From: Bradyrhizobium sp. CCBAU 051011
GTDB lineage: Bacteria; Pseudomonadota; Alphaproteobacteria; Rhizobiales; Xanthobacteraceae
Direction: 5' to 3'
NCBI RefSeq assembly: GCF_009930815.1
Contig: NZ_CP022222.1
Location: 3,824,501-3,888,500, forward strand
Length of the DNA: 64,000 nt
In this document: piece after piece, positions 42,528 to 56,674 of the stretch
Layout: each line of letters opens with the position of its first letter
Numbering within the stretch: position 1 is the stretch's first letter
Made by a program: the position numbers and the translations under genes
Notes under the pieces: generated by a model
Database searches by the model: none
Told to the model about the DNA's origin: nothing
What the model saw: the letters and a program-made list of their open reading frames with translations, nothing else

Positions 42528-43157
42528 TCAGGCTTCCGGAGCCTCGTCCGCCGCGGCCAGCCGTTCGGCTTCGGCGATGTCATCCACCGTGTTCGCATTG
42601 AAGAAGGGATCGAGCGGCTCGGTCCGCCAGGCCACAGTGGCAAGCTTATAGCGCGCGGTCCAGCGGTCGATTTTCCTGATGTCCTCGACGACAAGCGCAT
42701 GGCGCAACTCGTCGCGCAAGGCGACGCTCCATAACCCGATGACCGGATGCGATTGGCCGCTGGAAGCGGCGACCGCGAGCTCTGCATTTTCATCAATCAG
42801 CGCCTGATGCAGGCGCGAGGCCAGATCGCGCGGCAGGAACGGACAGTCCGCGGCTGCGCTCAGCACCAGAGCCACCTCGGGCCGGTTCGCCGCCATCCAG
42901 TCAAGCGCGGCCAGGATGCCGGCGAGGGGGCCAGGGAAATCGGCGACGCCGTCGGCGATCACCGGTAGCCCGAACGCAGCGAAGCGGGCGGGATCGCCGT
43001 TGGCATTGAGGATCAATCCGTCGCATTGCGGCGCAAGCCGCGCGATCACGCGATCGAGGATGGTGCGACCGGCGATCGTGCGCATCGCCTTGTCGCCGCC
43101 GCCCATCCGCCGCGCCAGCCCGCCGGCAAGCAGAACGCCAGGAATCTTACTCGTCAC
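42528..43157 (-). CDS. mobA: Molybdenum cofactor guanylyltransferase MobA
   Basis: The 209-residue product links GMP to molybdopterin, making the bis-MGD used by formate dehydrogenase. The nucleotide motif is [20 protein letters not shown], followed by [20 protein letters not shown] and [17 protein letters not shown] start it at GTG 43157, which overlaps the end of fdhD by 11 bases on the same strand; the 40 extra codons upstream read fdhD sequence in another frame. The pairing fdhD-mobA fits its role for the formate dehydrogenase encoded at 52-57 kb. Confidence 0.91.
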
Positions 43158-44037
43158 GTTCTTCGCCCTTGCGCTTGTGCCGCGCGGATTCCTCCTCGAC
43201 ATAGTCGAGGTTCTGATCGAACACGATCCGCTCCTGTCCCGACAATACGATGAAGCGTTTGCCCCTCGTGCGGCCAACCAATGTCAGTCCGACCTGCCGC
43301 GCCAGTTCGACACCCCACGCCGTAAAGCCCGAGCGCGAGACCAGAATGGGAATGCCCATCCGCACCGTCTTGATCACCATCTCGGAGGTCAGGCGGCCGG
43401 TGGTGTAGAGGATCTTGTCGGCGGGATCGACGCCGTGGCGATAGATCCAGCCCGCGATCTTGTCGACGGCGTTGTGGCGGCCGACGTCTTCGGTGTAGCA
43501 GACGGGCGTGCCTTCCTTGCACAGCACGCAGCCATGGATCGCGCCGGCTTCCAGATAGAGCGAGGGCATAGTATTTATCGTACGCGTCATCTCGTAGAGC
43601 CAGGAAGTACGCAACTCGGCCTTCGGCAGCGCCACGCTTTCGACGGCTTCGAGCAGATCGCCGAATGCGGTGCCCTGTGCGCAGCCTGAAGTCTGCGTAC
43701 GCTTCTTCAGCTTGGCCTCAAAATTGGTGTGATGCTCGGTGCGAACCACCACCACCTGCAGGTCGTCGTGATATTCGACCTCGGTGACGACATCGTCGTA
43801 CTTCAGCATGTTCTGGTTCAGGAGGTAGCCGAGCGCCAGATACTCCGGATAGTCGCCGATCGTCATCATGGTGACGATCTCCTGCGCGTTCAGGTACAGC
43901 GTCAGCGGCCGCTCCACCGGCACCCGGATTTCGACCGCAGCACCCGTCTGGTCGGTTCCGGCAACGCGCTCCGTCAGCCGCGGATCCTCAGGATTCGGCA
44001 CGATCAGGGGGGCGGGCGCTTTTTCCATCTTCATCAT
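43147..44037 (-). CDS. fdhD: Formate dehydrogenase accessory sulfurtransferase FdhD
   Basis: The 296-residue product has family blocks [57 protein letters not shown] and [20 protein letters not shown]. FdhD moves sulfur to the molybdenum cofactor of formate dehydrogenase. The usual SCGxCG cysteine pair is represented by TSGCAQGTA with one Cys, while a separate HGCVLCKEG carries a CxxC later. Start: ATG 44037 or one codon later. Its end overlaps mobA. Confidence 0.93.
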
Positions 44038-44108: not shown

Positions 44109-44198
44109 CGTCATGGCCGGGCTTGTCCCGGCCATCCACGTCTTTCTTTCGGCGATAGAACCAAGACGTGGATGCCCGGGATCAGCCCGGGCATGACG
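44109..44198. repeat. 36-bp inverted repeat element
   Basis: The arms 44109-44144 and 44163-44198 are reverse complements except for about four positions; both contain CGTCATG at the outer end and ACGTGGAT/ATCCACGT inside. It lies between divergent fdhD and mobB. It matches the form of the palindromic intergenic repeats that are frequent in Bradyrhizobium; any promoter role is unknown. Confidence 0.65.
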
Positions 44199-44228
44199 AT
44201 CCATGAAGAACTGCCGGCGGAGAACGTA

Positions 44229-44756
44229 ATGAAAGTAATAGGCCTCGCGGGATGGAGCGGCGCCGGCAAGACCACCTTGCTGACGCGGGCGATCCCGCAA
44301 TTCGCAAAACAGGGGCTACGGGTCTCCGTCATCAAGCACGCCCATCATGCCTTCGATGTCGACGTGCCCGGCAAGGATTCCTGGCGGCACCGCGAGGCCG
44401 GCGCGGCCGAAGTTCTGGTGTCGTCCGGCCGGCGCTGGGCGCTGATGCATGAGCTGCGCGGCGCGCATGAACCGCGACTGCCGGAACTGCTGGCGAAGAT
44501 GTCGCCGGTGGATCTCGTCGTCGTCGAGGGCTTCAAGCGCGAGCCGCATCGCAAGATCGAGGTCTATCGCGCCGCGAATGAAAAGCCGCTGCTGTTCCCC
44601 GACGATCCCGGCATTGTCGGCATCGCGACCGATACGGCGGTTGAAACCAAGCTGCCGACTGCCCATCTCGACGATATCGAGGCCGTGGCCGCGATGATGT
44701 TGCGGTCGGCGATCTCGCTCGAAGACGTGCTGGCCAAATGCGAAGCTGAGGGCTGA
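44229..44756 (+). CDS. mobB: Molybdopterin-guanine dinucleotide biosynthesis protein MobB
   Basis: The 175-residue P-loop protein has the Walker A stretch GWSGAGKTTLLTRAIPQF, followed by VIKHAHHAFDVDVPGKDSWR and the family motif VVVEGFKREPHRKIEVYR. It assists MobA. I start at ATG 44229 after GCGGAGAACGTA. moeA begins 8 bases after its stop, so mobB-moeA-tusA form one transcript. Confidence 0.93.
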   Translation: MKVIGLAGWSGAGKTTLLTRAIPQFAKQGLRVSVIKHAHHAFDVDVPGKDSWRHREAGAAEVLVSSGRRWALMHELRGAHEPRLPELLAKMSPVDLVVVEGFKREPHRKIEVYRAANEKPLLFPDDPGIVGIATDTAVETKLPTAHLDDIEAVAAMMLRSAISLEDVLAKCEAEG

Positions 44757-44764
44757 TCAGGCAC

Positions 44765-46021
44765 ATGGCGCAATTGTCCGACGATTGCTTTGCCTTCGGC
44801 GGTCCGATGATGTCGGTCGATGAGGCCGTGGGCCTCATCGCCACGCGCGTGACGCCGGTCGTGGATATCGAGACGGTAGCGCTCGCCGGCGCCGATGGCC
44901 GCATTCTTGCGCATGAAATGTTGGCGCCACTGCCGCTGCCGCCCTTCACCAATTCCGCCGTCGATGGCTATGCGGTTTCAAGTCGCGACCTGCCGCAGAA
45001 CGACGAACAGGCATTTGCTATTGTCGGCCGCGTCCAGGCGGGCAGTTCCGCATCCGCACCGCTCAAGCCGGGGCACGCGATGCGCATTTTCACCGGCGCG
45101 CCGATGCCCGAAGGCGCCGACACCGTGTTTATGCAGGAGGACGTCCGCGTCGACGGCGACAAGGTCGTGCTTCCCGCCGGCCTCAAGCCCGGCGCCAATG
45201 TACGCCCCGCGGGCGAGGATATCCCTTCAGGCTTTGCGGCCTTGCAGCCCGGCCAGCGGCTGCGGCCGCAGGATGTCGCGCTTGCCGCGGCGTTCGGCCT
45301 GACCGAGCTCGATGTCGTCAGGCGCCTGCGCGTCGCCGTGTTCTCCACGGGCAACGAGATCGCTTCGCCCGGCGAAGCGCGCGCCGCGGCGCAACTATTC
45401 GACTCCAACCGCTTCATGCTGATGGCGATGTTGTCGCGACTCGGCTGCGACGTCAGCGATCTCGGCATCATCAGGGACGATCGCGCTTCGCTGGCCCGCG
45501 CGCTGCAGGAGGTCGCCGGCAGCCATGATTTGATCCTTACAACCGGCGGCGTCTCGACCGGCGAGGAGGATCATGTCAAGGCAAGCGTCGAAAGCGTCGG
45601 CCGGCTGGTGCTGTGGCGGATGGCGATCAAGCCGGGACGGCCCGTCGCGATGGGCATCATCAACGGCACCCCCTTCATCGGATTGCCGGGCAATCCGGTG
45701 GCGAGTTTTGTCACTTTCGTTCACGTGGTGCGGCCGACCATCCTGGCGCTTTCGGGCGGGCGGCCGGAGCCGATTTTGCCGATGCCGGTTCGCGCCGCCT
45801 TCAGTTACAAGAAGAAGATCTCACGCCGTGAATATGTTCGCGTCAGCTTGCGCAAGGCGACCGACGGCGGGCTGGAGGCGGTGAAGTTTCCGCGCGAAGG
45901 CGCCGGGCTTTTGTCGTCGCTGGCGGACACCGACGGCCTAGTCGAACTCGGCGAAGACGTCACGCAGGTTACGCCCGGCCAGACGGTCGGGTTCCTGTCC
46001 TATGCAAGCCTGATCAACTGA
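44765..46021 (+). CDS. moeA: Molybdopterin molybdotransferase MoeA
   Basis: The 418-residue product has canonical motifs, unlike the paralogue at 36734: FTNSAVDGYAVSSRDL, FTGAPMPEGADTVFMQED, TTGGVSTGEEDHVK and PGNPVASFVTFVHVVRP. It inserts molybdate into adenylated molybdopterin. It follows mobB closely and precedes a TusA-like sulfur carrier, so it is the general-purpose MoeA for the formate dehydrogenase cofactor. Confidence 0.94.
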   Translation: MAQLSDDCFAFGGPMMSVDEAVGLIATRVTPVVDIETVALAGADGRILAHEMLAPLPLPPFTNSAVDGYAVSSRDLPQNDEQAFAIVGRVQAGSSASAPLKPGHAMRIFTGAPMPEGADTVFMQEDVRVDGDKVVLPAGLKPGANVRPAGEDIPSGFAALQPGQRLRPQDVALAAAFGLTELDVVRRLRVAVFSTGNEIASPGEARAAAQLFDSNRFMLMAMLSRLGCDVSDLGIIRDDRASLARALQEVAGSHDLILTTGGVSTGEEDHVKASVESVGRLVLWRMAIKPGRPVAMGIINGTPFIGLPGNPVASFVTFVHVVRPTILALSGGRPEPILPMPVRAAFSYKKKISRREYVRVSLRKATDGGLEAVKFPREGAGLLSSLADTDGLVELGEDVTQVTPGQTVGFLSYASLIN

Positions 46022-46061: not shown

Positions 46062-46313
46062 ATGACGACGACAAAACTCGATCTCGCCGGACTGAAATGC
46101 CCGCTGCCGGCCCTAAAGACGCGCAAGGCACTGAAGACGCTGCCGCCGGGCGACCGGTTGGAAGTGCTCTGCACCGATCCGCTGTCGGTGATCGATATCC
46201 CGAATCTCATTCGCGAGACCGGCGACAAGGTCGAAATCACCGAGCGCAGCCAGGACCGCATTGTTTTCTTGATAGAAAAAGCAAATGGGTCAATAGAAAA
46301 GGCGAATGCCTGA
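46062..46313 (+). CDS. TusA-like sulfur carrier
   Basis: The 83-residue product has the TusA motif LDLAGLKCPLPALKTRKAL with the CPxP cysteine, then PPGDRLEVLCTDPLSVIDIP. These proteins pass persulfide sulfur. In E. coli TusA helps supply FdhD, so its place in a formate/Moco cluster suggests it feeds sulfur to FdhD or Moco synthesis. A second Cys (VLCTDP) is also typical. The last ten residues are repetitive (KANGSIEKANA). Confidence 0.87.
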   Translation: MTTTKLDLAGLKCPLPALKTRKALKTLPPGDRLEVLCTDPLSVIDIPNLIRETGDKVEITERSQDRIVFLIEKANGSIEKANA

Positions 46314-46398: not shown

Positions 46399-47829
46399 AT
46401 GAACCTCCCGACATCGAAGGCGAGTGCGGCGATATCCCCTGCGGACGAACCGGCGGCCAAGCCAGGCAAATCGGCTGGCGGCCCCGAGTTCGGCGCGCTG
46501 GCGCAGGCCTCGATCCTGATCGTCGACGACGAGCCCGGAATGCGCAATTTTCTGGTGCGCACGCTGGGGCCGCGCTGCAAGCACGTGGAAGAGGCCGCCG
46601 ATACTGACGAAGCCTCGCGCAAGCTCGACAAAAATCGATTCGACGTCGTCATCCTCGACAACATCATGCCGGGCAAGAACGGTGTCGACTGGCTGGCGGA
46701 GCAGCGGGCCGTCGGCTTCTTTGCCGACGCCATCCTGATCACGGCCTACGCCGATCTCGACACCGCGATCCAGGCGCTGCGCGCCGGTGCGGTCGATTTC
46801 GTGTTGAAACCGTTTCGCTCGAACCAGATCCTGAACGCTGTGGCCCGCTGCCTCGACCGTGTCAGGCTGCAGCGCGAGAATTATGTTCTTCGCTATGCGC
46901 TGCGCGCATCCTCCGACCGCACCTTCCTGCGTGACAATCTGATCGGAGAATCGCCGGCGGCCCGAAGCGTGCGGGAAACCATCGCCCGTGTTGCCCGCCT
47001 GCCGACGTCGATCCTGCTCACCGGTGAATCCGGCACCGGCAAGGAAGTTGCCGCGCGCTCGATTCATTCGCTGTCCGACCGCGCCGACAAGCCGTTCGTG
47101 CCGGTGAACTGCGCGGCGATTCCGCCTGAAATGATCGAGGGCGAGCTGTTCGGCCACATCAAGGGCGCCTTCACCGGCGCGGACAGCGGCCGCGAGGGTC
47201 TGTTCCTCTATGCCCATGGCGGCACGCTGTTCCTCGATGAAATCGGCGAACTGCCGCTGCCGATGCAGAGCAAGTTGCTCCGCGTGCTGGAGGACCGCCG
47301 CGTCCGTCCCGTCGGCTCCGAGCGTGAAGTGCCGGTCGACCTTCGCCTCATCTTTGCGACCAATGCCGATCTGCAGAAGGAAGTGGAGAGGGGGCGCTTC
47401 CGTGCCGATCTGTATTACCGCCTCAACGTCATGCAGATTCATCTGCCGCTGTTGAAGGATCGCGGCGATGACGTGCAGGAACTCGCCACCATTTTCATGA
47501 ACAAGCTCTCGATACAGCTCGGCATGCCGCCGGTTGCGATCGACAGCTCAGTGCGCGCCGCACTGGCGAGTTACGATTGGCCGGGCAATGTGCGCGAGTT
47601 GCGCAATCTGATCGAGCGCGCCTTGATCCTCGGCGCGTTCCCGGACGATTTCGCCGGGCCGCCGCGCAATGACGGGCAGGCCGCCAGCGCTGACAGTCTC
47701 GCGGATCTGGAGCGTCGGCACATTCTTTCGGTGCTGAAGGAGACCGGCGGTAACCGCGAGGAGGCGGCGCGGCGGCTCGGCATCTCGCGCAAGACAATCG
47801 ATCGCAAACTTGCGTTATGGAATGGCTGA
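46399..47829 (+). CDS. Sigma-54-dependent response regulator (formate cluster)
   Basis: The 476-residue product starts at ATG 46399; the TTG at 46363 is weaker. The receiver domain has [12 protein letters not shown] and phospho-Asp D87 ([13 protein letters not shown]), with Lys in FVLKPF. The AAA+ domain has GESGTGKE near residue 209, [14 protein letters not shown] near 255 and [11 protein letters not shown]. The Fis-type DNA-binding end has [20 protein letters not shown]. It should activate sigma-54 promoters when phosphorylated. The kinase gene overlaps it by 8 bases, and the consensus sigma-54 site at 49937 lies right after that pair. Confidence 0.92.
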
Positions 47830-49909
47830 CCGGGCAGGCAGCATCGACGCGCCGGTACGCGGGCAATCCGTCCGCTTCCGCCTGCTTGCCATTGCACTGC
47901 TGCCGATGCTGGTCATCCTGCCGCTTCTGCTTGGCGTAGCCATCTATCGCTGGAATGCGAGATTTGACGCCACGCTGATTTCGAAGGTGAACGGCGATCT
48001 CACCATCGCGCATCAATATCTCGCCCGCATTCTGGAAAAGACCGGTGTTCAGATCCGAGGGCTCAGTCTCTCGTTCCGCTTCCGCGAGGTGGAAGAGCGT
48101 GAAACCCTCGCCGCCGTGGTGGATTTGCTCGAACAGTCCCGTAAGGAGATCGGCCTCGACTTTCTCTATCTGATGGACGCCGCTGGCAAGGTCGTCGCCT
48201 CGTCACCCCCGCTCAAGGGTGCGCCGAGGGCCGACTGGCCGATCATCAGGTCGGCATTGTCGGGCGAATCCATGTCGACGGGCATCGACATCTTTACCAA
48301 CGACGAACTTGCGGCGATCTCGCCCGCGCTGGCCGAGCGGGCGCGTCTCGATCTGGTGCCGACGCCAAACGCGGTGCCGACCGATCGCAGCACGGACACG
48401 AGCGGCATGGTGGTGCATGCTGCTGCCCGCGCAACGGCGCCCGGAGGAGGGCCGGCCGCGCTGGTCGGCGGGATTCTGCTGAACCAGAATCTCGAGTTCA
48501 TCGATACGATCAACGACCTTGTCTATCGCGAAGCGAGCCTGCCCGAGGGCAGCCAGGGCACGGCGACGCTGTTTCTCGACGACGTGCGGATATCGACCAA
48601 TGTCCGCCTGTTCGAGGGACGGCGCGCGCTCGGAACGCGGGTGTCGGCGGCAGTCCGTTCGGCGGTGCTGGGGGAAGGGCGTACCTGGCTGGACAGCGCT
48701 TTCGTCGTCAACGACTGGTACATCTCGGCCTACGAGCCGCTGGTCGACACCTATGGCAAGCGCGTCGGCATGCTCTATGTCGGATTTCTGCAGAAGCCGT
48801 TCAACGATGCGAAGTTCGAGACGCTCCTGATCATCGCGCTCGCCTTCATCGTGATCACGGGGGCGACGGTGCCGATTTTCCTGCGCTGGGCGCAATCGGT
48901 CTTCATGCCGCTCGAACGGGTCACGGCGACCATCGGCGAAGTCGAGAGCGGCAACCTGTCCGCCCGCACCAAACTGCCGGCGTCGGGCGATGAGATCGGC
49001 CGTGTGGCGGTTCACCTGGATACGCTGCTGGACCAGATTCAGGAGCGCGATCGCCAGTTGCGCGAGTGGAACGAGGAGCTGAACACGCGGGTCCGCGAGC
49101 GAACGCGGGACCTCGAGCATGCCAATCTGAAGCTGGAGGCGACGACCAAGCAGCTCATCATGTCCGAGAAGCTCGCCGCCATCGGCGAGATCACCGCGGG
49201 CGTGGCGCATGAGATCAACAATCCCATCGCGGTGATGCAGGGCAATCTCGACGTCATCCGCAGCGTGATCGGCGCCGACGTCGACAAGGCCAAGGTCGAG
49301 TTCCGGCTGCTGGATGAGCAGATCCACCGCATCAGCCAGATCGTCATGAAACTTCTCCAGTTCGCCCGGCCGGAGGAATATGCCGGCTATGTCGAGCGCC
49401 ATGCGCCGGGAAGCGTCGTGCTGGATTGCTTGCCGCTGGTCCAGCATCTCCTGAACAAGACCGAAATCAATGTCGTGCGGGAAGATCGGGCGAGCCGCCT
49501 GGTCCTGATGAACCGCACGGAGTTACAGCAGGTCGTGATCAACCTGATCGTCAACGCCATCCACGCCATGCCCGACGGCGGCACGTTAACTCTCCGCTCC
49601 TTCGACGCCGATCGCGATGGGAACCCGGGCATTGCAATCGAAGTGGCCGACACCGGCATCGGCATGAGCGCGGACATCATGGAGAAGGTGTTCGACCCCT
49701 TCTTCACATCTAAGCGCCGCGAAGGCACCGGCCTTGGCCTATCGATCAGCCAGACGCTGGTGAAGCGCCAGCGCGGCCAGATCACCGTCGAAAGCCAGAT
49801 CGGCTCGGGGAGCACATTCCGCTGTGGCTGCCGGAAGCGAGCTGATCGGACATTTTGTCCGGAGGCGGTCTGGACATTTTGTCCGCCGACGCGGGAGCCA
49901 TCCCGCTAA
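47822..49909 (+). CDS. Sensor histidine kinase (partner of the sigma-54 regulator)
   Basis: The product has 695 residues from ATG 47822, overlapping the regulator gene. It has an N-terminal membrane segment (LLAIALLPMLVILPLLLGVAI), a Cache-type periplasmic domain (single Cache 3/2 style, VGMLYVGFLQKPF at its end), a second membrane segment (LIIALAFIVITGATVPIFL) and a HAMP domain. HisKA follows with phospho-His about H463 (TAGVAHEINNPIAVMQG), then a HATPase domain (GTGLGLSISQTLVKRQRG). After GSGSTFR the frame reads CGCRKRADR and on. One added base near 49822 would give RLWLPEAS and a stop at 49843, so the tail of about 22 residues is likely a frameshift product. Confidence 0.88.
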   Translation: MADRAGSIDAPVRGQSVRFRLLAIALLPMLVILPLLLGVAIYRWNARFDATLISKVNGDLTIAHQYLARILEKTGVQIRGLSLSFRFREVEERETLAAVVDLLEQSRKEIGLDFLYLMDAAGKVVASSPPLKGAPRADWPIIRSALSGESMSTGIDIFTNDELAAISPALAERARLDLVPTPNAVPTDRSTDTSGMVVHAAARATAPGGGPAALVGGILLNQNLEFIDTINDLVYREASLPEGSQGTATLFLDDVRISTNVRLFEGRRALGTRVSAAVRSAVLGEGRTWLDSAFVVNDWYISAYEPLVDTYGKRVGMLYVGFLQKPFNDAKFETLLIIALAFIVITGATVPIFLRWAQSVFMPLERVTATIGEVESGNLSARTKLPASGDEIGRVAVHLDTLLDQIQERDRQLREWNEELNTRVRERTRDLEHANLKLEATTKQLIMSEKLAAIGEITAGVAHEINNPIAVMQGNLDVIRSVIGADVDKAKVEFRLLDEQIHRISQIVMKLLQFARPEEYAGYVERHAPGSVVLDCLPLVQHLLNKTEINVVREDRASRLVLMNRTELQQVVINLIVNAIHAMPDGGTLTLRSFDADRDGNPGIAIEVADTGIGMSADIMEKVFDPFFTSKRREGTGLGLSISQTLVKRQRGQITVESQIGSGSTFRCGCRKRADRTFCPEAVWTFCPPTREPSR
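49847..49885. promoter_or_regulatory. Two tandem 15-bp palindromes, possible activator sites
   Basis: CGGACATTTTGTCCG (49847-49861) is a perfect 6-3-6 palindrome. A second copy, TGGACATTTTGTCCG (49871-49885), differs in one base; the centres are 24 bases apart. They lie 52-90 bases before a consensus sigma-54 promoter, the normal place for activator binding. They begin two bases after the inferred ancestral stop of the kinase gene. An insertion-sequence end is the alternative reading. Confidence 0.55.
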
Positions 49910-49936
49910 GTGATTGATTTTCTGTATCGCGCCATT

Positions 49937-49952
49937 TGGCACGTCGATTGCT
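49937..49952 (+). promoter_or_regulatory. Sigma-54 (-24/-12) promoter before the OFA transporter
   Basis: TGGCACGTCGATTGCT fits the sigma-54 consensus at every fixed position (TGGCAC, 5-base gap, TTGCT). Transcription would start near 49963, leaving about 260 bases of leader before ATG 50223 in which I see no gene or other feature. Confidence 0.75.
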
Positions 49953-50222: not shown

Positions 50223-51875
50223 ATGAGTACAGCCGATGCCACGCTTGCACCGTCAGGTGCGCTCGGGCTCCTCGACAAGGAGCGAACGATCGCGACAGCC
50301 GGCTTCAACCGCTGGCTGGTGCCGCCGGCCGCGCTCTGCATCCATCTCTGCATCGGCATGGCCTATGGCTTCAGCGTGTTCTGGCTGCCGCTGTCGCGCG
50401 CGATCGGGCTGAGTGCGCCGAAGGCCTGCCAGGACATGACGCTGGTGCAGGAGCTCTTCACCACCACCTGCGACTGGAAGGTCGCCAGCATGGGCTGGAT
50501 GTACACGCTGTTCTTCGTGCTGCTCGGCATTGCCGCCGCAGTGTGGGGCGGCTGGCTCGAGCGCGTCGGCCCCCGCAAGGCGGGCTTCGTCTCGGCGATG
50601 TGCTGGTGCGGCGGGCTCTTCCTCGGCGCGATCGGCATCTACACGCACCAGCTCTGGCTGCTGTGGCTCGGCTCGGGTGTGATCGGCGGCGTCGGTCTCG
50701 GCCTCGGTTACATTTCGCCGGTGTCGACGCTGGTGAAATGGTTCCCGGACCGGCGCGGCATGGCGACCGGCATGGCGATCATGGGCTTTGGCGGCGGCGC
50801 CATGATCGGCGCGCCGCTGGCCAATCTCCTGATGAACTATTTCAAGACCCCAACCTCGGTCGGCGTCTGGGAAACCTTCGTTGCGATGGGCGTGATCTAC
50901 TTCGTGTTCATGATGATCGGCGCCTTCCGCTATCGCATTCCGCCGGCGGGCTGGCGGCCCGAGGGCTGGACGCCGCCGACCAAGGCCAATGCGATGATCT
51001 CGCAGAACCACGTTCATCTGAAGGACGCGCACAAGACGCCGCAGTTCTGGCTGATCTGGTGGGTGCTCTGCCTCAACGTGTCGGCAGGCATCGGCGTGAT
51101 CGGCATGGCTTCGCCGATGCTGCAGGAAATCTTCGCCGGCAAGCTGATCGGATTGCCCGATGTCGGCTTCAATCAGCTCGACGCGACGCAGAAGGCGACG
51201 ATTGCAGGCATTGCGGCCGGCTTCGCCGGACTGCTCTCGCTGTTCAATATCGGCGGCCGCTTCATCTGGGCCTCGCTGTCGGACAAGATCGGACGCAAGA
51301 ACACTTACTACACGTTCTTCATCCTCGGCATCGTGCTCTACGCGCTGGCGCCGACCTTCGCGGCGATGGGCTCGAAGCTTCTGTTCGTGCTCGGCTTCGG
51401 TATCATCCTTTCGATGTATGGCGGCGGCTTCGCCACCGTGCCGGCCTATCTCGCCGACATGTTCGGAACGCAGTTCGTCGGCGCCATTCATGGCCGTCTG
51501 CTGACGGCCTGGTCGACGGCCGGCATCATCGGTCCCGTGGTCGTGAACTACATCCGCGAGTTTCAGCTTGCGGCCGGCGTTCCGCGTGACCAGCTCTACA
51601 ACACCACGATGTATATCCTGTGCGCGATGCTGATCGCGGGCCTGATCTGCAACTATCTGATCAAGCCGGTCGATGCGAAGTGGCACATGAGCGATGCCGA
51701 GGTCGCCAAGCTGCAGGCCGCGACGGCGAACGCCGGGGCTTCGGGCCCGTCAGGCTCCTATGGCATCGGCTTCGGCGGGCTCGACGCCAAAGCCGCGCTG
51801 TTCTGGGCCTTCGTCGGCATCCCGCTGGCCTGGGGCGTGTGGAAGACGCTGGAAAGCGCCGTCAAGATCTTGTGA
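50223..51875 (+). CDS. Oxalate/formate antiporter-family (OFA) MFS transporter
   Basis: The 550-residue membrane protein has about twelve helices of the major facilitator type plus an extra one at the C terminus. MFS loop motifs are GGWLERVGPRKAGFVSAM and SLSDKIGRKNTYYTF. OFA-type blocks are CIGMAYGFSVFWLPLS and KWFPDRRGMATGMAIMGFGGG. The C-terminal addition KAALFWAFVGIPLAWGVWKTL looks like a separate small helix protein that often accompanies such carriers, here fused. GGAGG precedes ATG 50223. Adjacent formate dehydrogenase and sigma-54 promoter suggest it brings in formate or exchanges oxalate for formate. Confidence 0.92.
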   Translation: MSTADATLAPSGALGLLDKERTIATAGFNRWLVPPAALCIHLCIGMAYGFSVFWLPLSRAIGLSAPKACQDMTLVQELFTTTCDWKVASMGWMYTLFFVLLGIAAAVWGGWLERVGPRKAGFVSAMCWCGGLFLGAIGIYTHQLWLLWLGSGVIGGVGLGLGYISPVSTLVKWFPDRRGMATGMAIMGFGGGAMIGAPLANLLMNYFKTPTSVGVWETFVAMGVIYFVFMMIGAFRYRIPPAGWRPEGWTPPTKANAMISQNHVHLKDAHKTPQFWLIWWVLCLNVSAGIGVIGMASPMLQEIFAGKLIGLPDVGFNQLDATQKATIAGIAAGFAGLLSLFNIGGRFIWASLSDKIGRKNTYYTFFILGIVLYALAPTFAAMGSKLLFVLGFGIILSMYGGGFATVPAYLADMFGTQFVGAIHGRLLTAWSTAGIIGPVVVNYIREFQLAAGVPRDQLYNTTMYILCAMLIAGLICNYLIKPVDAKWHMSDAEVAKLQAATANAGASGPSGSYGIGFGGLDAKAALFWAFVGIPLAWGVWKTLESAVKIL

Positions 51876-51882
51876 CCTTTCA

Positions 51883-51913
51883 CGGCGTCGCGGGCAGGCG
51901 GCCCGCGACGCCG
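51883..51913 (+). terminator. Rho-independent-type terminator after the OFA gene
   Basis: A perfect 13-bp stem (CGGCGTCGCGGGC / GCCCGCGACGCCG) around AGGCG lies 7 bases after the stop and is followed by CTTTTTT at 51925-51931. Together with the promoter-like site at 52134 it separates the transporter from the dehydrogenase operon. The rest of 51932-52133 shows nothing else. Confidence 0.78.
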
Positions 51914-52133: not shown

Positions 52134-52149
52134 TGGCATCTGGCATGCC
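52134..52149 (+). promoter_or_regulatory. Sigma-54-like promoter before the formate dehydrogenase operon
   Basis: TGGCATCTGGCATGCC has GG and GC at the right 10-base distance and five of six bases of TGGCAC, but ATGC replaces TTGC. It is weaker than the site at 49937. It lies 45 bases before the start codon. I see no copy of the palindromes of 49847-49885 in front of it. Confidence 0.45.
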
Positions 52150-52193: not shown

Positions 52194-53912
52194 ATGGATC
52201 ACGACGTACACGACCTACAAAAAGTCCGGGCGTTCGACCATCCGGGTGCGGGACGGAAGCGCGCCAAGGCGACACCGAAGGGCCGTCAGGTCGACCCCAC
52301 CGCCGCCCACGAGATCGAACTCCTGCTCGGCGACCGGCCGCGGCGGCGCGACCTCCTGATCGAGCATCTGCACCTGATCCAGGACAAGTATCACCAGATC
52401 TCGGCGGCGCATCTGGCGGCGCTGGCCGACGAGATGAAGCTGTCGTTTGCGGAAGTGTTCGAGACCGCGACGTTCTATGCGCATTTCGACGTGGTGAAGG
52501 AAGGCGCGCCCGACATCGCGCCGCTCACAATCCGGGTCTGCGATTCCCTGACCTGCGCCATGATGGGCGCGGAGAAGCTGCTGCATGAATTGCAGGACAA
52601 GGCCGGTCCCGGCATTCGCGTGGTGCGCGCGCCCTGTGTCGGCCGCTGCGATACTGCGCCCACCGCCGAAGTCGGTCATCACTTCGTCGATCATGCCACG
52701 GTGGCGAACGTGTTCGCTGCCGCCAAGGCCGGCCACACCCATGCGCATCTGCCCAAATATGTCGACTATGACGCCTATGTTGCTGATGGCGGCTACAAGC
52801 TGCTGAACCGTCTGCGCTCCGGCGCGATGACGAAAGAAGATCTGCTGAAATCGCTCGACGACGCCTCGCTGCGCGGGCTCGGCGGCGCCGGCTTCCCGAC
52901 GGGACGGAAGTGGCGCGCGGTGCTCGGCGAGCCCGGCCCACGGCTGATGGCGATCAACGGCGACGAGGGCGAGCCCGGCACCTTCAAGGATCGCTTCTAT
53001 CTCGAAACGGACCCGCATCGCTTCATCGAGGGCATGCTGATCGGCGCCCATGTGGTCGAGGCCACCGACGTCTACATTTACCTGCGCGACGAATACCCGG
53101 CCTCGCGCGAAATCCTCGAACGCGAGATTGCAAAACTGCCGCCTGGCGGTCCCGTGCTGCACATGCGCCGCGGCGCCGGCGCCTATATCTGCGGCGAGGA
53201 ATCCTCGCTGCTCGAATCGATCGAGGGCAAGCGCGGCCTGCCTCGGCACAAGCCGCCTTATCCGTTCCAGGTCGGCCTGTTCGGCTTGCCGACGCTGATC
53301 AACAACATCGAGACGCTGTGGTGGGTGCGCGACATCGTCGAGAAGGGCGCCGACTGGTGGAAGAGCCACGGCCGCAACGACCGTCATGGCCTGCGCAGCT
53401 ATTCGGTTTCAGGCCGCGTGAAGAATCCCGGCATGAAGCTGGCGCCCGCAGGCGTCACCGTGCGCGAACTGATCGATGAGTTCTGCGGCGGCATGGCAGA
53501 TGGGCACACCTTCCACGCTTACCTTCCGGGCGGCGCGTCGGGCGGCATTTTGCCGGCCTCGATGGACAACATCCCGCTCGATTTCGGCACGCTGGAAAAA
53601 TACGGTTGCTTCATCGGCTCGGCCGCCGTCGTCATCATGTCCGAGCAGGACAGCGTGAAGGGCGCGGCGCTGAACCTGATGAAATTCTTCGAGGATGAAA
53701 GCTGCGGCCAGTGCACACCGTGCCGGGTCGGCACCCAGAAGGCGGCGCTGTTGATGCAGCGTCCGGTCTGGGACCGTGAATTGCTCGATCAATTGAGCCA
53801 GGCGATGCGCGATGCCTCGATCTGCGGGCTTGGACAAGCCGCCTCGAATCCGCTGACGTCAGTGATCAAATATTTTCCGGAAGAATTCGTGCCGAGAGAG
53901 GCCGCGGAATGA
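52194..53912 (+). CDS. fdsB: NAD-dependent formate dehydrogenase, fused gamma-beta subunit
   Basis: The 572-residue product has two parts. Residues 1 to about 170 are NuoE-like, with the [2Fe-2S] cysteines CDSLTC and CVGRCD. The rest is NuoF-like: SLRGLGGAGFPTGRKW (FMN/NADH), RRGAGAYICGEESSLLESIE, and the [4Fe-4S] motif ESCGQCTPCRVGT with SICGLG. In most Fds enzymes these are two subunits (FdsG and FdsB). It passes electrons from formate to NAD+. The 4-base overlap with the alpha gene (ATGA) shows coupling. A weak ribosome site precedes ATG 52194. Confidence 0.94.
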   Translation: MDHDVHDLQKVRAFDHPGAGRKRAKATPKGRQVDPTAAHEIELLLGDRPRRRDLLIEHLHLIQDKYHQISAAHLAALADEMKLSFAEVFETATFYAHFDVVKEGAPDIAPLTIRVCDSLTCAMMGAEKLLHELQDKAGPGIRVVRAPCVGRCDTAPTAEVGHHFVDHATVANVFAAAKAGHTHAHLPKYVDYDAYVADGGYKLLNRLRSGAMTKEDLLKSLDDASLRGLGGAGFPTGRKWRAVLGEPGPRLMAINGDEGEPGTFKDRFYLETDPHRFIEGMLIGAHVVEATDVYIYLRDEYPASREILEREIAKLPPGGPVLHMRRGAGAYICGEESSLLESIEGKRGLPRHKPPYPFQVGLFGLPTLINNIETLWWVRDIVEKGADWWKSHGRNDRHGLRSYSVSGRVKNPGMKLAPAGVTVRELIDEFCGGMADGHTFHAYLPGGASGGILPASMDNIPLDFGTLEKYGCFIGSAAVVIMSEQDSVKGAALNLMKFFEDESCGQCTPCRVGTQKAALLMQRPVWDRELLDQLSQAMRDASICGLGQAASNPLTSVIKYFPEEFVPREAAE

Positions 53913-56674
53913 CCAAGATTCAATTCGAGCTCGACGGCAAGCAAGTCGAGGCCAATGCGGGCGAGACCATCTGGCAAGTGGCAAAACGCCACCAGAAAGA
54001 GATCCCGCATCTCTGCTATTCGCCTGAGCCCGACTACCGGCCCGACGGCAATTGCCGTGCCTGCATGGTCGAGATCGAGGGCGAGCGCGTGCTGGCCGCG
54101 TCTTGCAAGCGCACCCCGAGCGTCGGCATGAAGGTAAAGACCGAGAGCGCGCGCGCGGTCGCCGCGCAGAAGATGGTGATGGAACTTCTGGTCGCAGACC
54201 AGCCGGCGCGCGAGACCTCGCACGATCCCGATTCGAAATTCTGGAACTGGGCCGAAAAGGTCGAGGTCACCGAGAGCCGTTTCCCGGCCGCCGAGCGCTG
54301 GTCGAGCGACACCAGCCACCCCGCAATGAGCGTCAATCTTGATGCCTGCATCCAGTGCGGCCTCTGCGTGCGCGCCTGCCGCGAGGTGCAGGTCAACGAC
54401 GTCATCGGCATGGCCTATCGCAATGCCGGCGCCAAGATCGTGTTCGACTTCGACGATCCCATGGGCGAATCGACCTGCGTCGCTTGCGGCGAATGCGTGC
54501 AGGCGTGCCCGACCGGCGCGCTGATGCCGTCGGTGATGCTCGACGAGAAGCAGACCCGCGTCACCTATGCGGACAAGAAGGTGGACTCGCTGTGCCCGTT
54601 CTGCGGCGTCGGCTGCCAGGTCACCTATCAGGTCAAGGACGAGAAGGTCATCTATGCCGAAGGCCGCGACGGCCCGGCCAACCATAACCGCCTTTGCGTC
54701 AAGGGCCGCTTTGGCTTTGACTACATCCACCACCCGCATCGGTTGACCAAGCCGCTGGTGCGGCTGCCGAACGCGAAGAAGGACGCCAACGACCAGGTCG
54801 ATCCGGCCAATCCGTTCACGCATTTCCGCGAAGCGTCGTGGGAAGAGGCGCTGGATATTGCGGCCAAGGGCCTCGTGAAAATTCGCGACGAGAAGGGCGT
54901 CAAGGCGCTCGCCGGCTTCGGCTCGGCGAAGGGATCGAACGAGGAAGCCTACCTGTTCCAGAAGCTGGTTCGTACCGGCTTCGGCTCGAACAATGTCGAC
55001 CATTGCACCCGGCTGTGCCACGCCTCCTCGGTGGCGGCGCTGTTCGAAGGTCTGAGTTCGGGCGCGGTGTCGGCGCCGTTCGCAGCCGCAATGGACGCCG
55101 AGGTCATCATCGTGATCGGTGCCAACCCGACGGTGAACCATCCGGTCGCCGCGACCTACATCAAGAACGCGGCGAAGAAGGGCGCGAAACTCTTCGTGCT
55201 GGATCCGCGCAGGCAGGCGCTGTCGCGTCACGCGACGAAGCATTTGCAGTTCAAGCCGGGCTCCGACGTCGCCATGCTCAATGCGATGATCAACACGATC
55301 ATCACCGAGGGCCTGACCGACGACCAGTACATTGCGGGTTACACCGAGGGATTCCAGGACCTCGAGGAGAAGATCAAGGAGTTCACGCCGGAGAAGATGG
55401 CGCCGATCTGCGGCATCGATGCCGAGACCCTGCGCGAGGTCGCCAGAACCTACGCCCGCGCGAAGTCCTCGATCATCTTCTGGGGCATGGGCATCAGCCA
55501 GCATGTCCACGGCACCGATAACGCGCGCTGCCTGATTGCGCTTGCCCTGATCACCGGCCAGGTCGGCCGTCCCGGCACTGGGTTGCATCCGCTCCGCGGT
55601 CAGAACAACGTGCAGGGCGCCTCCGACGCCGGCCTGATCCCGATGTTCCTGCCCGACTACCAGCCCGTCGGCCGCGACGACATGCGCGGCAACTTCGAGA
55701 AGCTGTGGGACCAGGACCTCGATCCCGTCCGCGGCCTCACCGTGGTCGAGATCATGAATGCGATCCACGCCGGCGAGATCACGGGCATGTATATCGAGGG
55801 CGAGAACCCGGCGATGTCCGACCCCGATCTCCAGCATGCGCGCCATGCGCTCGCCATGCTCGATCATCTCGTGGTGCAAGATCTCTTTGTCACCGAGACC
55901 GCGTTCCACGCCGACGTCATCCTGCCGGCCTCTGCGTTCGCGGAAAAGGACGGTTCGTTCACCAACACCGATCGCCGCGTGCAGCTCGCGCGCCAGGTGA
56001 TCAAGCCGCCGGGTGACGCGCGGCAGGATCTCTGGATCATCCAGGAGATCGGCAAGCGCATGGGGCTGCCGTGGAATTATTCGGGTCCCGGCGACGTCTA
56101 CACCGAGATGGCGCAGCTGATGCCCTCGCTCAAGAACATCAGCTGGGAACGGTTGGTGCGCGAAGGAGCCGTCACCTATCCGGCGGATGATCCGAGCAAG
56201 CCCGGCAATGAGATCATCTTCACGACCGGCTTCCCGACCGCGAGCGGCCGCGGCAAGATCGTGCCCGCCAAAGTGATCCCGCCGGATGAGCTGCCCGACA
56301 CCGAATATCCGATGGTGCTGTCCACGGGGCGCGTGCTCGAGCACTGGCACACCGGCTCGATGACGCGGCGTGCGCAGGTGCTCGATCAGATCGAGCCCGA
56401 GGCGGTGGCGTTCATGTCGCCGAAGGACATGCGGCGCTTAAGCGTCTGGCCCGGCGATTTCATCCGCCTGGAGACCCGCCGCGGCGCCGTCGAGGTCAAG
56501 GTGCGCTCCGACCGCGACGTGCCGGAGAACATGGTGTTCATGCCGTTCTGCTACGCGGAGGCGGCTGCGAACCTGCTCACCAACCCCGCGCTCGATCCGT
56601 TCGGAAAAATCCCCGAATTCAAGTTCTGCGCCGTGCGCGCGGAAAAGGTGGCGCTGCAGTCGGCGGCGGAGTAG
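53909..56674 (+). CDS. fdsA: NAD-dependent formate dehydrogenase, alpha (molybdenum) subunit
   Basis: The 921-residue product has an N-terminal [2Fe-2S] domain (CYSPEPDYRPDGNCRACM), two [4Fe-4S] ferredoxin motifs (CIQCGLCVRACREV and CVACGECVQACPTGAL), and the [4Fe-4S] cysteines CPFCGVGCQ of the molybdopterin domain. In NNVDHCTRLCHASS the second Cys is the molybdenum ligand, standing where E. coli FdhF has Sec. The C-terminal dinucleotide-binding region includes TGRVLEHWHTGSMTRR. It oxidises formate to CO2 in the cytoplasm with bis-MGD supplied by MobA/MoeA and sulfurated by FdhD. A small hairpin (56681-56696) follows the stop. Confidence 0.96.
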   Translation: MTKIQFELDGKQVEANAGETIWQVAKRHQKEIPHLCYSPEPDYRPDGNCRACMVEIEGERVLAASCKRTPSVGMKVKTESARAVAAQKMVMELLVADQPARETSHDPDSKFWNWAEKVEVTESRFPAAERWSSDTSHPAMSVNLDACIQCGLCVRACREVQVNDVIGMAYRNAGAKIVFDFDDPMGESTCVACGECVQACPTGALMPSVMLDEKQTRVTYADKKVDSLCPFCGVGCQVTYQVKDEKVIYAEGRDGPANHNRLCVKGRFGFDYIHHPHRLTKPLVRLPNAKKDANDQVDPANPFTHFREASWEEALDIAAKGLVKIRDEKGVKALAGFGSAKGSNEEAYLFQKLVRTGFGSNNVDHCTRLCHASSVAALFEGLSSGAVSAPFAAAMDAEVIIVIGANPTVNHPVAATYIKNAAKKGAKLFVLDPRRQALSRHATKHLQFKPGSDVAMLNAMINTIITEGLTDDQYIAGYTEGFQDLEEKIKEFTPEKMAPICGIDAETLREVARTYARAKSSIIFWGMGISQHVHGTDNARCLIALALITGQVGRPGTGLHPLRGQNNVQGASDAGLIPMFLPDYQPVGRDDMRGNFEKLWDQDLDPVRGLTVVEIMNAIHAGEITGMYIEGENPAMSDPDLQHARHALAMLDHLVVQDLFVTETAFHADVILPASAFAEKDGSFTNTDRRVQLARQVIKPPGDARQDLWIIQEIGKRMGLPWNYSGPGDVYTEMAQLMPSLKNISWERLVREGAVTYPADDPSKPGNEIIFTTGFPTASGRGKIVPAKVIPPDELPDTEYPMVLSTGRVLEHWHTGSMTRRAQVLDQIEPEAVAFMSPKDMRRLSVWPGDFIRLETRRGAVEVKVRSDRDVPENMVFMPFCYAEAAANLLTNPALDPFGKIPEFKFCAVRAEKVALQSAAE

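What the first reader, a model, noticed from the sequence alone, without database searches (positions are those of the whole stretch)
46399..49952. Sigma-54 two-component pair next to a consensus sigma-54 promoter and tandem palindromes
The regulator has GAFTGA and the promoter TGGCAC-N5-TTGCT is perfect. Two 15-bp palindromes (CGGACATTTTGTCCG and a one-mismatch copy, 24 bp apart) sit where activator sites belong. The gene controlled is an oxalate/formate-type transporter. This looks like a complete local control circuit.
Basis: partly seen in the sequence, partly recalled or inferred. Interest (0 to 1): 0.76.

Follow-up and report, generated by a model that had tools for sequence, protein, structure and literature searches.

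The report
Formate-sensing sigma-54 switch for a transporter
A soil bacterium carries a two-part sensor switch, probably triggered by formate, whose paired DNA landing sites sit in front of a carboxylate transporter gene beside a formate-burning enzyme; the same layout recurs in many relatives, and in some of them it appears to have been redirected to protein-protecting stress genes.

Summary
Two GGACATTTTGTCC cores (centres -109 and -85 from the inferred start) precede a perfect -24/-12 promoter. They are the only exact copies in the 9.1-Mb genome. In 80 loci found by the kinase protein alone (the best 80 of 492), 58 carry GGACA-N3-TGTCC upstream of a sigma-54 promoter; 319 control palindromes reach at most 2 of 80. 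The sites stay with the transporter when gene order differs. Best reading: a complete local circuit, with one correction: the evidence points to formate, not oxalate. The kinase sensor matches by sequence the two formate-bound receptors 8py0/8py1, the next PDB hit being insignificant; the reported formate contacts are kept in 119 of 119 kinases compared. The transporter lacks OxlT's oxalate lysine in 100 of 100 sequences, whereas a carrier beside the genome's frc-oxc genes has it. A related regulator clade has the same architecture before dnaK, groESL, clpB and other genes. Binding, ligand and induction are inferred.

The parts
46399..47829 (+). Response regulator, NtrC type: receiver, AAA+ with GAFTGA, Fis-type helix-turn-helix ending in [10 protein letters not shown]
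   Evidence: Pfam Response_reg, Sigma54_activat, HTH_8; recognition-helix region nearly invariant in most relatives listed
47822..49909 (+). Sensor histidine kinase with double Cache sensor; ATG 47822 overlaps the regulator stop; frame shifted by -1 near the C-terminus, so the open frame runs through the palindromes
   Evidence: Pfam sCache_3_3, HAMP, HisKA, HATPase_c; C-terminus compared with 31 relatives; sensor model pLDDT 87.3
48587..48637 (+). Formate-contact triad R245, T248, T261 (sensor numbering) in the membrane-proximal Cache module
   Evidence: same spacing as R142, T145, T158 of PacF; kept in 119 of 119 kinases compared
49847..49861 (.). Distal activator-site palindrome, centre -109 from inferred +1
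49871..49885 (.). Proximal activator-site palindrome, centre -85 from inferred +1
49907..49919 (-). IHF-like site AATCAATCACTTA (perfect to WATCAANNNNTTR), centre -50
   Evidence: consensus recalled
49937..49952 (+). Sigma-54 promoter TGGCACG-N4-TTGCT; inferred start of transcription 49963
50223..51875 (+). MFS transporter of the OFA family, probably a monocarboxylate carrier (R346 kept, the OxlT K355 equivalent is W430)
51884..51912 (+). GC-rich hairpin after the transporter gene, with arm changes that keep pairing in relatives; possible terminator or attenuator before the FDH genes
   Evidence: read by eye from the four-sequence alignment; position
52194..53912 (+). NAD-linked formate dehydrogenase beta subunit (fused GB)
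   Evidence: closest solved structure is the tungsten FDH beta subunit of 7e5z/7vw6
53909..56674 (+). Formate dehydrogenase alpha subunit
   Evidence: TIGR01591 over cut-off; closest 7vw6, tungsten-containing FDH
43147..44037 (-). fdhD, FDH maturation
   Evidence: Pfam FdhD-NarQ
44172..46021 (+). mobB and moeA, molybdenum/tungsten cofactor genes
   Evidence: Pfam MobB, MoeA
46062..46313 (+). tusA-like sulfur carrier
   Evidence: Pfam TusA

Best explanation
This is a local two-component circuit. The membrane kinase senses formate outside the cytoplasm through its membrane-proximal Cache module and phosphorylates the NtrC-type regulator encoded by the overlapping gene. Regulator dimers bind the two GGACA-N3-TGTCC palindromes at -109 and -85, assemble on them, and reach the sigma-54 polymerase at -24/-12 by a DNA bend at the IHF-like site at -50. 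This switches on an MFS monocarboxylate (probably formate) transporter beside the formate dehydrogenase that consumes the substrate. Shown by sequence: genes, domains, sites, spacing, conservation and co-occurrence. Inferred: binding, phosphorelay, ligand, transport substrate and direction, induction.
For: (1) Sites: 58 of 80 kinase-located loci have an exact site 60-145 nt upstream of a sigma-54 match, against at most 2 of 80 for 319 control palindromes; in a second, overlapping kinase-located set 19 of 24 against 0. (2) Geometry: 72 of 80 loci have a site set; of 144 sites 65 lie at -84..-88 and 63 at -105..-110, with little conservation outside the 13-bp core. (3) Co-occurrence in 149 genomes: 14 with both, 4 kinase only, 2 pattern only, 129 neither. 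(4) Sites stay upstream of the transporter where the order is different (L040, L104-L108). (5) IHF-like element: 0-1 mismatch in 17 of 26, 32 of 38 and 18 of 21 promoters that were chosen for a proximal site, against 0.7-1.8% of letter shuffles. (6) Formate: sequence matches to 8py0 (4.9e-5) and 8py1 (8.4e-5), the next PDB hit at 0.09; triad in 119 of 119; FDH subunit genes in 44 of 80 loci. (7) Transporter: with the oxalate locus of the same genome as a contrast.
Against: No binding, ligand or expression data exist. 22 of 80 loci fail the strict test and 12 of 80 have no exact palindrome. Of nine plasmid loci fetched (of 117 records with a match) only three pass (L117, L118, L125); of the five Rhodobacterales ones four have no exact site and L121 has two without a sigma-54 match of score 10. 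The triad is also present in the other sCache_3_3 proteins found in the same genomes, so it marks the domain family rather than this kinase. Outside Bradyrhizobium only 20 of 47 full loci have FDH subunits nearby. The transporter scores nearest to an L-lactate model (317.7, cut-off 320). FDH may have its own promoter. The kinase C-terminus is frameshifted in this genome. In the formate receptor Atu0526 the key-arginine mutant lost chemotaxis but bound formate more tightly.
Confidence: 0.7

Rival explanations
1. The same circuit, but the signal and cargo are another small monocarboxylate (lactate, glyoxylate, acetate), and the neighbouring formate dehydrogenase is only a frequent companion.
For: The transporter is closest to the SfMCT L-lactate model, 317.7 bits against a 320 cut-off, and of four homologues scanned the 42% one (L071) passes it with 322.7. 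27 of 47 non-Bradyrhizobium full loci have no FDH subunit in reach.
Against: Only formate-bound receptors match the sensor significantly by sequence in the PDB; triad 119 of 119; unrelated FDH types recur next to the kinase.
Confidence: 0.2
2. Oxalate circuit: an OxlT-like oxalate/formate antiporter induced by oxalate.
For: OFA family membership in the broad sense; the genome has frc and oxc over their cut-offs.
Against: The OxlT K355 equivalent is W in 100 of 100 sequences (the role of K355 is recalled). TIGR04259 scores 129 against a cut-off of 335 and TIGR00890 152 against 375. frc-oxc lie about 1.2 Mb away with an OFA-like carrier beside them that has both R and K, and no exact palindrome in the 20 kb around.
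Confidence: 0.04
3. The palindromes are not the regulator's sites: a repressor's operator, or RNA hairpins that terminate the kinase transcript.
For: In Bradyrhizobium they follow the kinase stop directly, and each could fold as a short hairpin.
Against: Terminator scan at chance level (1 found, 2.1 expected). The three middle bases are partly conserved and the sites keep their distance to sigma-54 promoters in front of other genes and in other gene orders. Presence follows the kinase gene across genomes.
Confidence: 0.04

Closest known systems
DctB/DctD and other NtrC-family two-component circuits (AtoC and AtoS are the nearest NCBIfam models)
   Same: Periplasmic Cache kinase, sigma-54 AAA+ regulator, paired upstream sites (for DctD recalled), transporter target; the DctB sensor is among the structural neighbours
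   Different: Nearest models stay far below their cut-offs (AtoC 381 against 714, AtoS 174 against 646); site sequence GGACA-N3-TGTCC; formate-type triad; FDH neighbourhood
Formate chemoreceptors PacF, McpF, Atu0526 and the formate-bound receptors 8py0/8py1
   Same: Arg-x2-Thr-x12-Thr at the spacing of the PacF contacts, and sequence match to 8py0/8py1
   Different: Those are chemotaxis receptors, and PacF binds formate in its distal module; here the domain is the membrane-proximal module of a double Cache and drives a histidine kinase and transcription
E. coli FhlA (recalled)
   Same: Sigma-54 activator answering to formate
   Different: FhlA binds formate itself, in the cytoplasm, with no kinase; here sensing would be extracytoplasmic through a phosphorelay
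OxlT oxalate:formate antiporter (8hpj)
   Same: Fold family and the conserved arginine
   Different: Oxalate lysine (role recalled) replaced by tryptophan in 100 of 100 sequences
SfMCT-type L-lactate transporter (6g9x)
   Same: Best curated model and best PDB hit
   Different: 317.7 bits, just under the 320 cut-off; substrate untested
Bradyrhizobium groESL under NifA and sigma-54 (recalled)
   Same: Sigma-54 control of chaperonin genes
   Different: There the activator is NifA; in the stress clade found here the site is GGACA-N3-TGTCC and the regulator is a paralogue of the window's

Membership tests
NtrC-family response regulator (sigma-54 activator) | Receiver + AAA+ with GAFTGA + Fis-type HTH | tested here: met
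NtrC-family response regulator (sigma-54 activator) | Specific binding to upstream sites and activation in vitro | not testable with these tools
   needs gel shift and transcription assay
Sigma-54 promoter with enhancer | GG/GC at -24/-12, consensus match | tested here: met
   11 of 11 consensus positions
Sigma-54 promoter with enhancer | Activator sites about 80-150 bp upstream | tested here: met
   -109 and -85 from the inferred start; range as stated in PMC13207237, passage read
Sigma-54 promoter with enhancer | IHF site between enhancer and promoter (frequent, not obligatory) | tested here: met
   consensus match only, centre -50; IHF binding not tested
Formate-binding Cache receptors | Arg-x2-Thr-x12-Thr contacts | tested here: met
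Formate-binding Cache receptors | Sequence relation to a formate-bound structure | tested here: met
   8py0 E 4.9e-5, 8py1 E 8.4e-5
Formate-binding Cache receptors | Measured formate binding | not testable with these tools
   none
OxlT oxalate:formate antiporter | Arg272 and Lys355 substrate pair (recalled) | tested here: not met
   R kept, K replaced by W in 100 of 100 sequences
OxlT oxalate:formate antiporter | Curated model TIGR04259 over cut-off | tested here: not met
   129 against 335 bits
SfMCT L-lactate transporter (NF049980) | Curated model over cut-off | tested here: not met
   317.7 against 320 bits
FDH1-type NAD formate dehydrogenase (tungsten, 7vw6) | Alpha subunit plus fused GB beta subunit, closest to 7vw6/7e5z | tested here: met
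   1701 and 1002 bits; metal content not testable

The most novel reading that the evidence does not exclude
An undescribed alphaproteobacterial family of formate-sensing sigma-54 two-component systems uses one promoter grammar (GGACA-N3-TGTCC at about -108 and -85, IHF at -50, -24/-12). It first controlled monocarboxylate uptake beside formate dehydrogenases. One daughter clade was then redirected, keeping sensor triad and grammar, to a set containing dnaK, groESL, clpB, superoxide dismutase, DUF308/HdeD-like and other genes, so that extracellular formate would act as an alarm for acid or protein stress.
Probability: 0.45. Interest if true: 0.75.

Novelty: new member of a known kind. Interest (0 to 1): 0.6.

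Why it matters
Formate is a central one-carbon metabolite. How these soil and plant-associated bacteria would sense it for transcription was not described in the titles, abstract starts or passages that I saw in ten literature searches (several lists were capped). The promoter grammar is precise enough to read regulons out of genomes, names the ligand to test, and gives a candidate formate-responsive part for one-carbon biotechnology. The chaperone-linked clade would be a clean case of rewiring in which sensor and DNA code stay and the targets change.

Tried and rejected
Insertion-element ends: rejected, two exact copies in the genome. Other sites in this genome: GGACANNNTGTCC occurs at 9 places against 5 for the reversed control; apart from the two here none lies 46-76 nt before a sigma-54-like match. 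That pattern needs an exact palindrome, so promoters with mismatched sites could be missed. Terminator reading: chance level. Oxalate reading: rejected. FDH under the same promoter: left open; there is a 318-bp gap, a conserved hairpin, and in L049 about 4 kb between transporter and FDH. Pfam gave no hit for the short Hsp20-like reading frame in L041, so I do not count hsp20. Pairs found by pattern rather than protein are not used as the statistical test, because they are selected on the site. Of 25 strong kinase hits I used 24; G092 was left out because only a 3-kb locus was held (it has the pair), and weak hits (E above 1e-60) were left out. G858 and G892 carry the pattern without the kinase and were kept in the 2x2 table. 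The pair in L039 has no sigma-54 match and no kinase in its 20 kb. Structure search alone was not relied on for the ligand, because many amino-acid receptors rank as high. The primary paper on the formate triad (PNAS 2025, Monteagudo-Cascales et al.) is not held; its residues are quoted from passages of PMC12501870.
Full report
What is in the window. The genes run mobA and fdhD (minus strand), then mobB, moeA, tusA, regulator, kinase, transporter, and the two formate dehydrogenase subunits on the plus strand. The regulator has receiver, AAA+ and Fis-type HTH domains; the kinase has Cache, HAMP, HisKA and HATPase domains. The FDH subunits are closest to the tungsten-containing FDH in 7vw6 and 7e5z.

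The observation. Taking the second G of TGGCAC as -24, the start would be 49963 and the palindrome centres -109 and -85. The 13-bp core occurs exactly twice in the 9.1-Mb genome. The combined pattern occurs at one promoter in this genome, and its reversed control at none in the 8 genomes tested.

Conservation. A first look with a 23-bp spacing pattern found 21 of 98 genomes of the genus (this genome was among the 98 and was missed because its spacing is 24). In 19 of the 21 the pair lies between this kinase and this transporter; the other two are promoters of the stress clade described below. These loci were chosen by the site, so I repeated the test on loci chosen only by the kinase sensor protein. 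In 24 such loci (of 25 strong hits; regions) 19 carry an exact GGACA-N3-TGTCC 60-145 nt upstream of a sigma-54 match, and none of 319 other palindromes of equal GC does in any locus. In 80 named loci (the best 80 of 492 confirmed, so the closer relatives) it is 58, against at most 2 for any control; 68 of 80 have an exact site, while spacers of 0-2 and 4-8 give 0-2 of 80. Some organisms occur in both sets. With one mismatch allowed, 72 of 80 have a site set, and 144 sites show a 13-bp core and little conservation beyond it.

Geometry and a third element. Of the 144 sites 65 lie at -84..-88 and 63 at -105..-110; 7 lie at -128..-130, 8 at -142/-143 or -100, 1 at -121. An alignment of ten Bradyrhizobium promoters shows islands at both palindromes, at the promoter and at one further block. 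That block, AATCAATCACTTA here at 49907-49919, is a perfect IHF consensus match (consensus recalled) centred at -50. I scored 85 promoters chosen for a proximal site at -84..-88: 0-1 mismatch in 17 of 26 of the Bradyrhizobium group (two of the 26 loci are MAGs named Pseudolabrys and Bradyrhizobiaceae), 32 of 38 others and 18 of 21 of the stress set; letter shuffles reach that in 0.7-1.8%. Nine of the 26 have two mismatches, which shuffles reach in 7%. In the earlier set of 37 transporter promoters several distant ones (L100-L102, L109, L071, L074) have no convincing IHF match.

Does the site belong to this regulator? In 149 genomes of the family, kinase and full pattern occur together in 14, kinase alone in 4, pattern alone in 2, neither in 129; Fisher p about 2e-14, not corrected for relatedness. 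The five genomes with only weak kinase-sensor hits were counted as lacking it. The site stays upstream of the transporter where the order is RR-site-MFS-HK (L040) or site-MFS-RR-HK (L104-L108). In one distant relative (L074; regulator 50% identical, altered recognition helix) the place is taken by a changed palindrome, GGGGCATTTTGCCCC; a single case, so only suggestive. L102 has only degenerate copies. L072 and L073 show no pair; L070 has a degenerate pair about 7 kb away from its kinase.

The signal. The modelled sensor (pLDDT 87.3) is a double Cache. Structure search lists many Cache receptors, among them two crystallised with formate. By sequence the proximal module hits only those two with E below 0.08, 8py0 and 8py1. 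In PacF changes of R142, T145 and T158 affect formate binding (PMC12501870, passages); an sCache_3_3 domain with the reported formate contacts was assigned formate in a gut survey (PMC12415202, passages); Atu0526 is a formate receptor whose R115A mutant lost chemotaxis although it bound formate more tightly (PMC8698456, passages). The window's kinase has R245, T248 and T261 at the PacF spacing, and all three are kept in 119 of 119 kinases compared, some genomes being represented twice. Caution: the other sCache_3_3 proteins found in these genomes have the triad too, and the gut survey could assign a ligand to only one kinase sensor (indole).

The cargo. The carrier keeps OxlT's Arg272 but has Trp for Lys355 (residue roles recalled; positions from the alignment), in this protein and in 100 of 100 homologous sequences, some genomes twice. 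It falls well below the oxalate/formate models and just below an L-lactate model. The genome holds oxc and frc about 1.2 Mb away, with an OFA-like carrier (28% identical) beside them that has both Arg and Lys, and no exact palindrome in those 20 kb. So the likely oxalate carrier is elsewhere, and the window's is better read as a monocarboxylate carrier.

Neighbourhood. FDH subunits lie in 44 of 80 loci, in 20 of 47 full-length loci outside Bradyrhizobium. They are of different types: the fused type here, FdsGB(A)-like sets (L070, L071, L074, Ponticoccus L119) and, as I read them, membrane-type sets (L072, L073). An Alloyangia plasmid has the kinase beside a 63% identical FDH alpha subunit and tusA. 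Of nine plasmid loci three (Shinella, Rhizobium, Sinorhizobium) pass the strict site test; a Methylorubrum extorquens one has one exact site with a weak promoter match; the five Rhodobacterales ones do not pass. Whether FDH is transcribed from the window's promoter is open: after the transporter comes a conserved hairpin, and FDH has its own conserved upstream block.

A redirected clade. A regulator tree of 49 proteins places L038, L041, L042, L103, L204, L205 and L235 in one supported clade (99/97) that joins the transporter-linked L040 (100/99); the root is drawn at the midpoint, so the direction of change is inferred. In these genomes the same layout (two sites with up to one mismatch each, or in one case one site, and a sigma-54 match) precedes dnaK, groES-groEL, clpB, Fe-superoxide dismutase, DUF308, bestrophin and FdhE genes, and lies 0.6-0.8 kb before an FlK-type thioesterase gene and an FdhF-like oxidoreductase gene followed by cydA. 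The sensor triad is kept in the kinases of this clade that were in the set. The window's genome shows no second system: one kinase hit and one promoter with an exact site.

An oddity. In this genome the kinase frame is shifted by -1 near the end, so its last residues differ from the 31 relatives and the open frame passes through the palindromes. It may be a sequencing error or a recent change; the sites are unaffected.

Print. The listings of ten literature searches showed no paper describing this circuit; some searches listed only 8 of 96, 15 of 219, 15 of 29 and 15 of 300 papers. Passages of seven papers were read, no paper in full. [quoted passage not shown] it does not mention this regulator in the passages seen. 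The library holds open-licence papers only, so this is a weak negative.

Verdict. A well-supported new formate-type member of a known kind, with an unexpected redirected branch. Steps from binding onward are inference.

Noticed in passing
L041, L042, L103, L116, L204 (Rhizobium sp. ICMP 5592), L205 (Mesorhizobium atlanticum): A paralogous regulator clade has the same -108/-85 palindrome layout and sigma-54 promoter in front of dnaK, groESL, clpB and other stress genes.
   Followed up: partly
window 49820-49909: Kinase reading frame shifted by -1 near its end relative to 31 relatives; the open frame runs through both palindromes.
   Followed up: partly
window 51884-51912: GC-rich hairpin directly after the transporter gene with arm changes that keep pairing in relatives.
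   Followed up: no
window 52134-52149: TGGCATCTGGCATGCC, kept in two of the three relatives aligned (the third was cut off), upstream of the FDH genes; possibly a second, weaker sigma-54-like element or another operator.
   Followed up: no
L237 (G000:C1:7721763-7722083): A second sCache_3_3 protein of about 600 aa in the same genome with the same Arg-Thr-Thr spacing; possibly a formate chemoreceptor.
   Followed up: no
L119, L124 (Ponticoccus, Leisingera plasmids): Near-palindromes precede the transporter but no sigma-54 consensus was found there; these relatives may use another promoter type.
   Followed up: no
L098 (G831): Site and sigma-54 promoter precede an AMP-binding enzyme gene instead of the transporter.
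   Followed up: no
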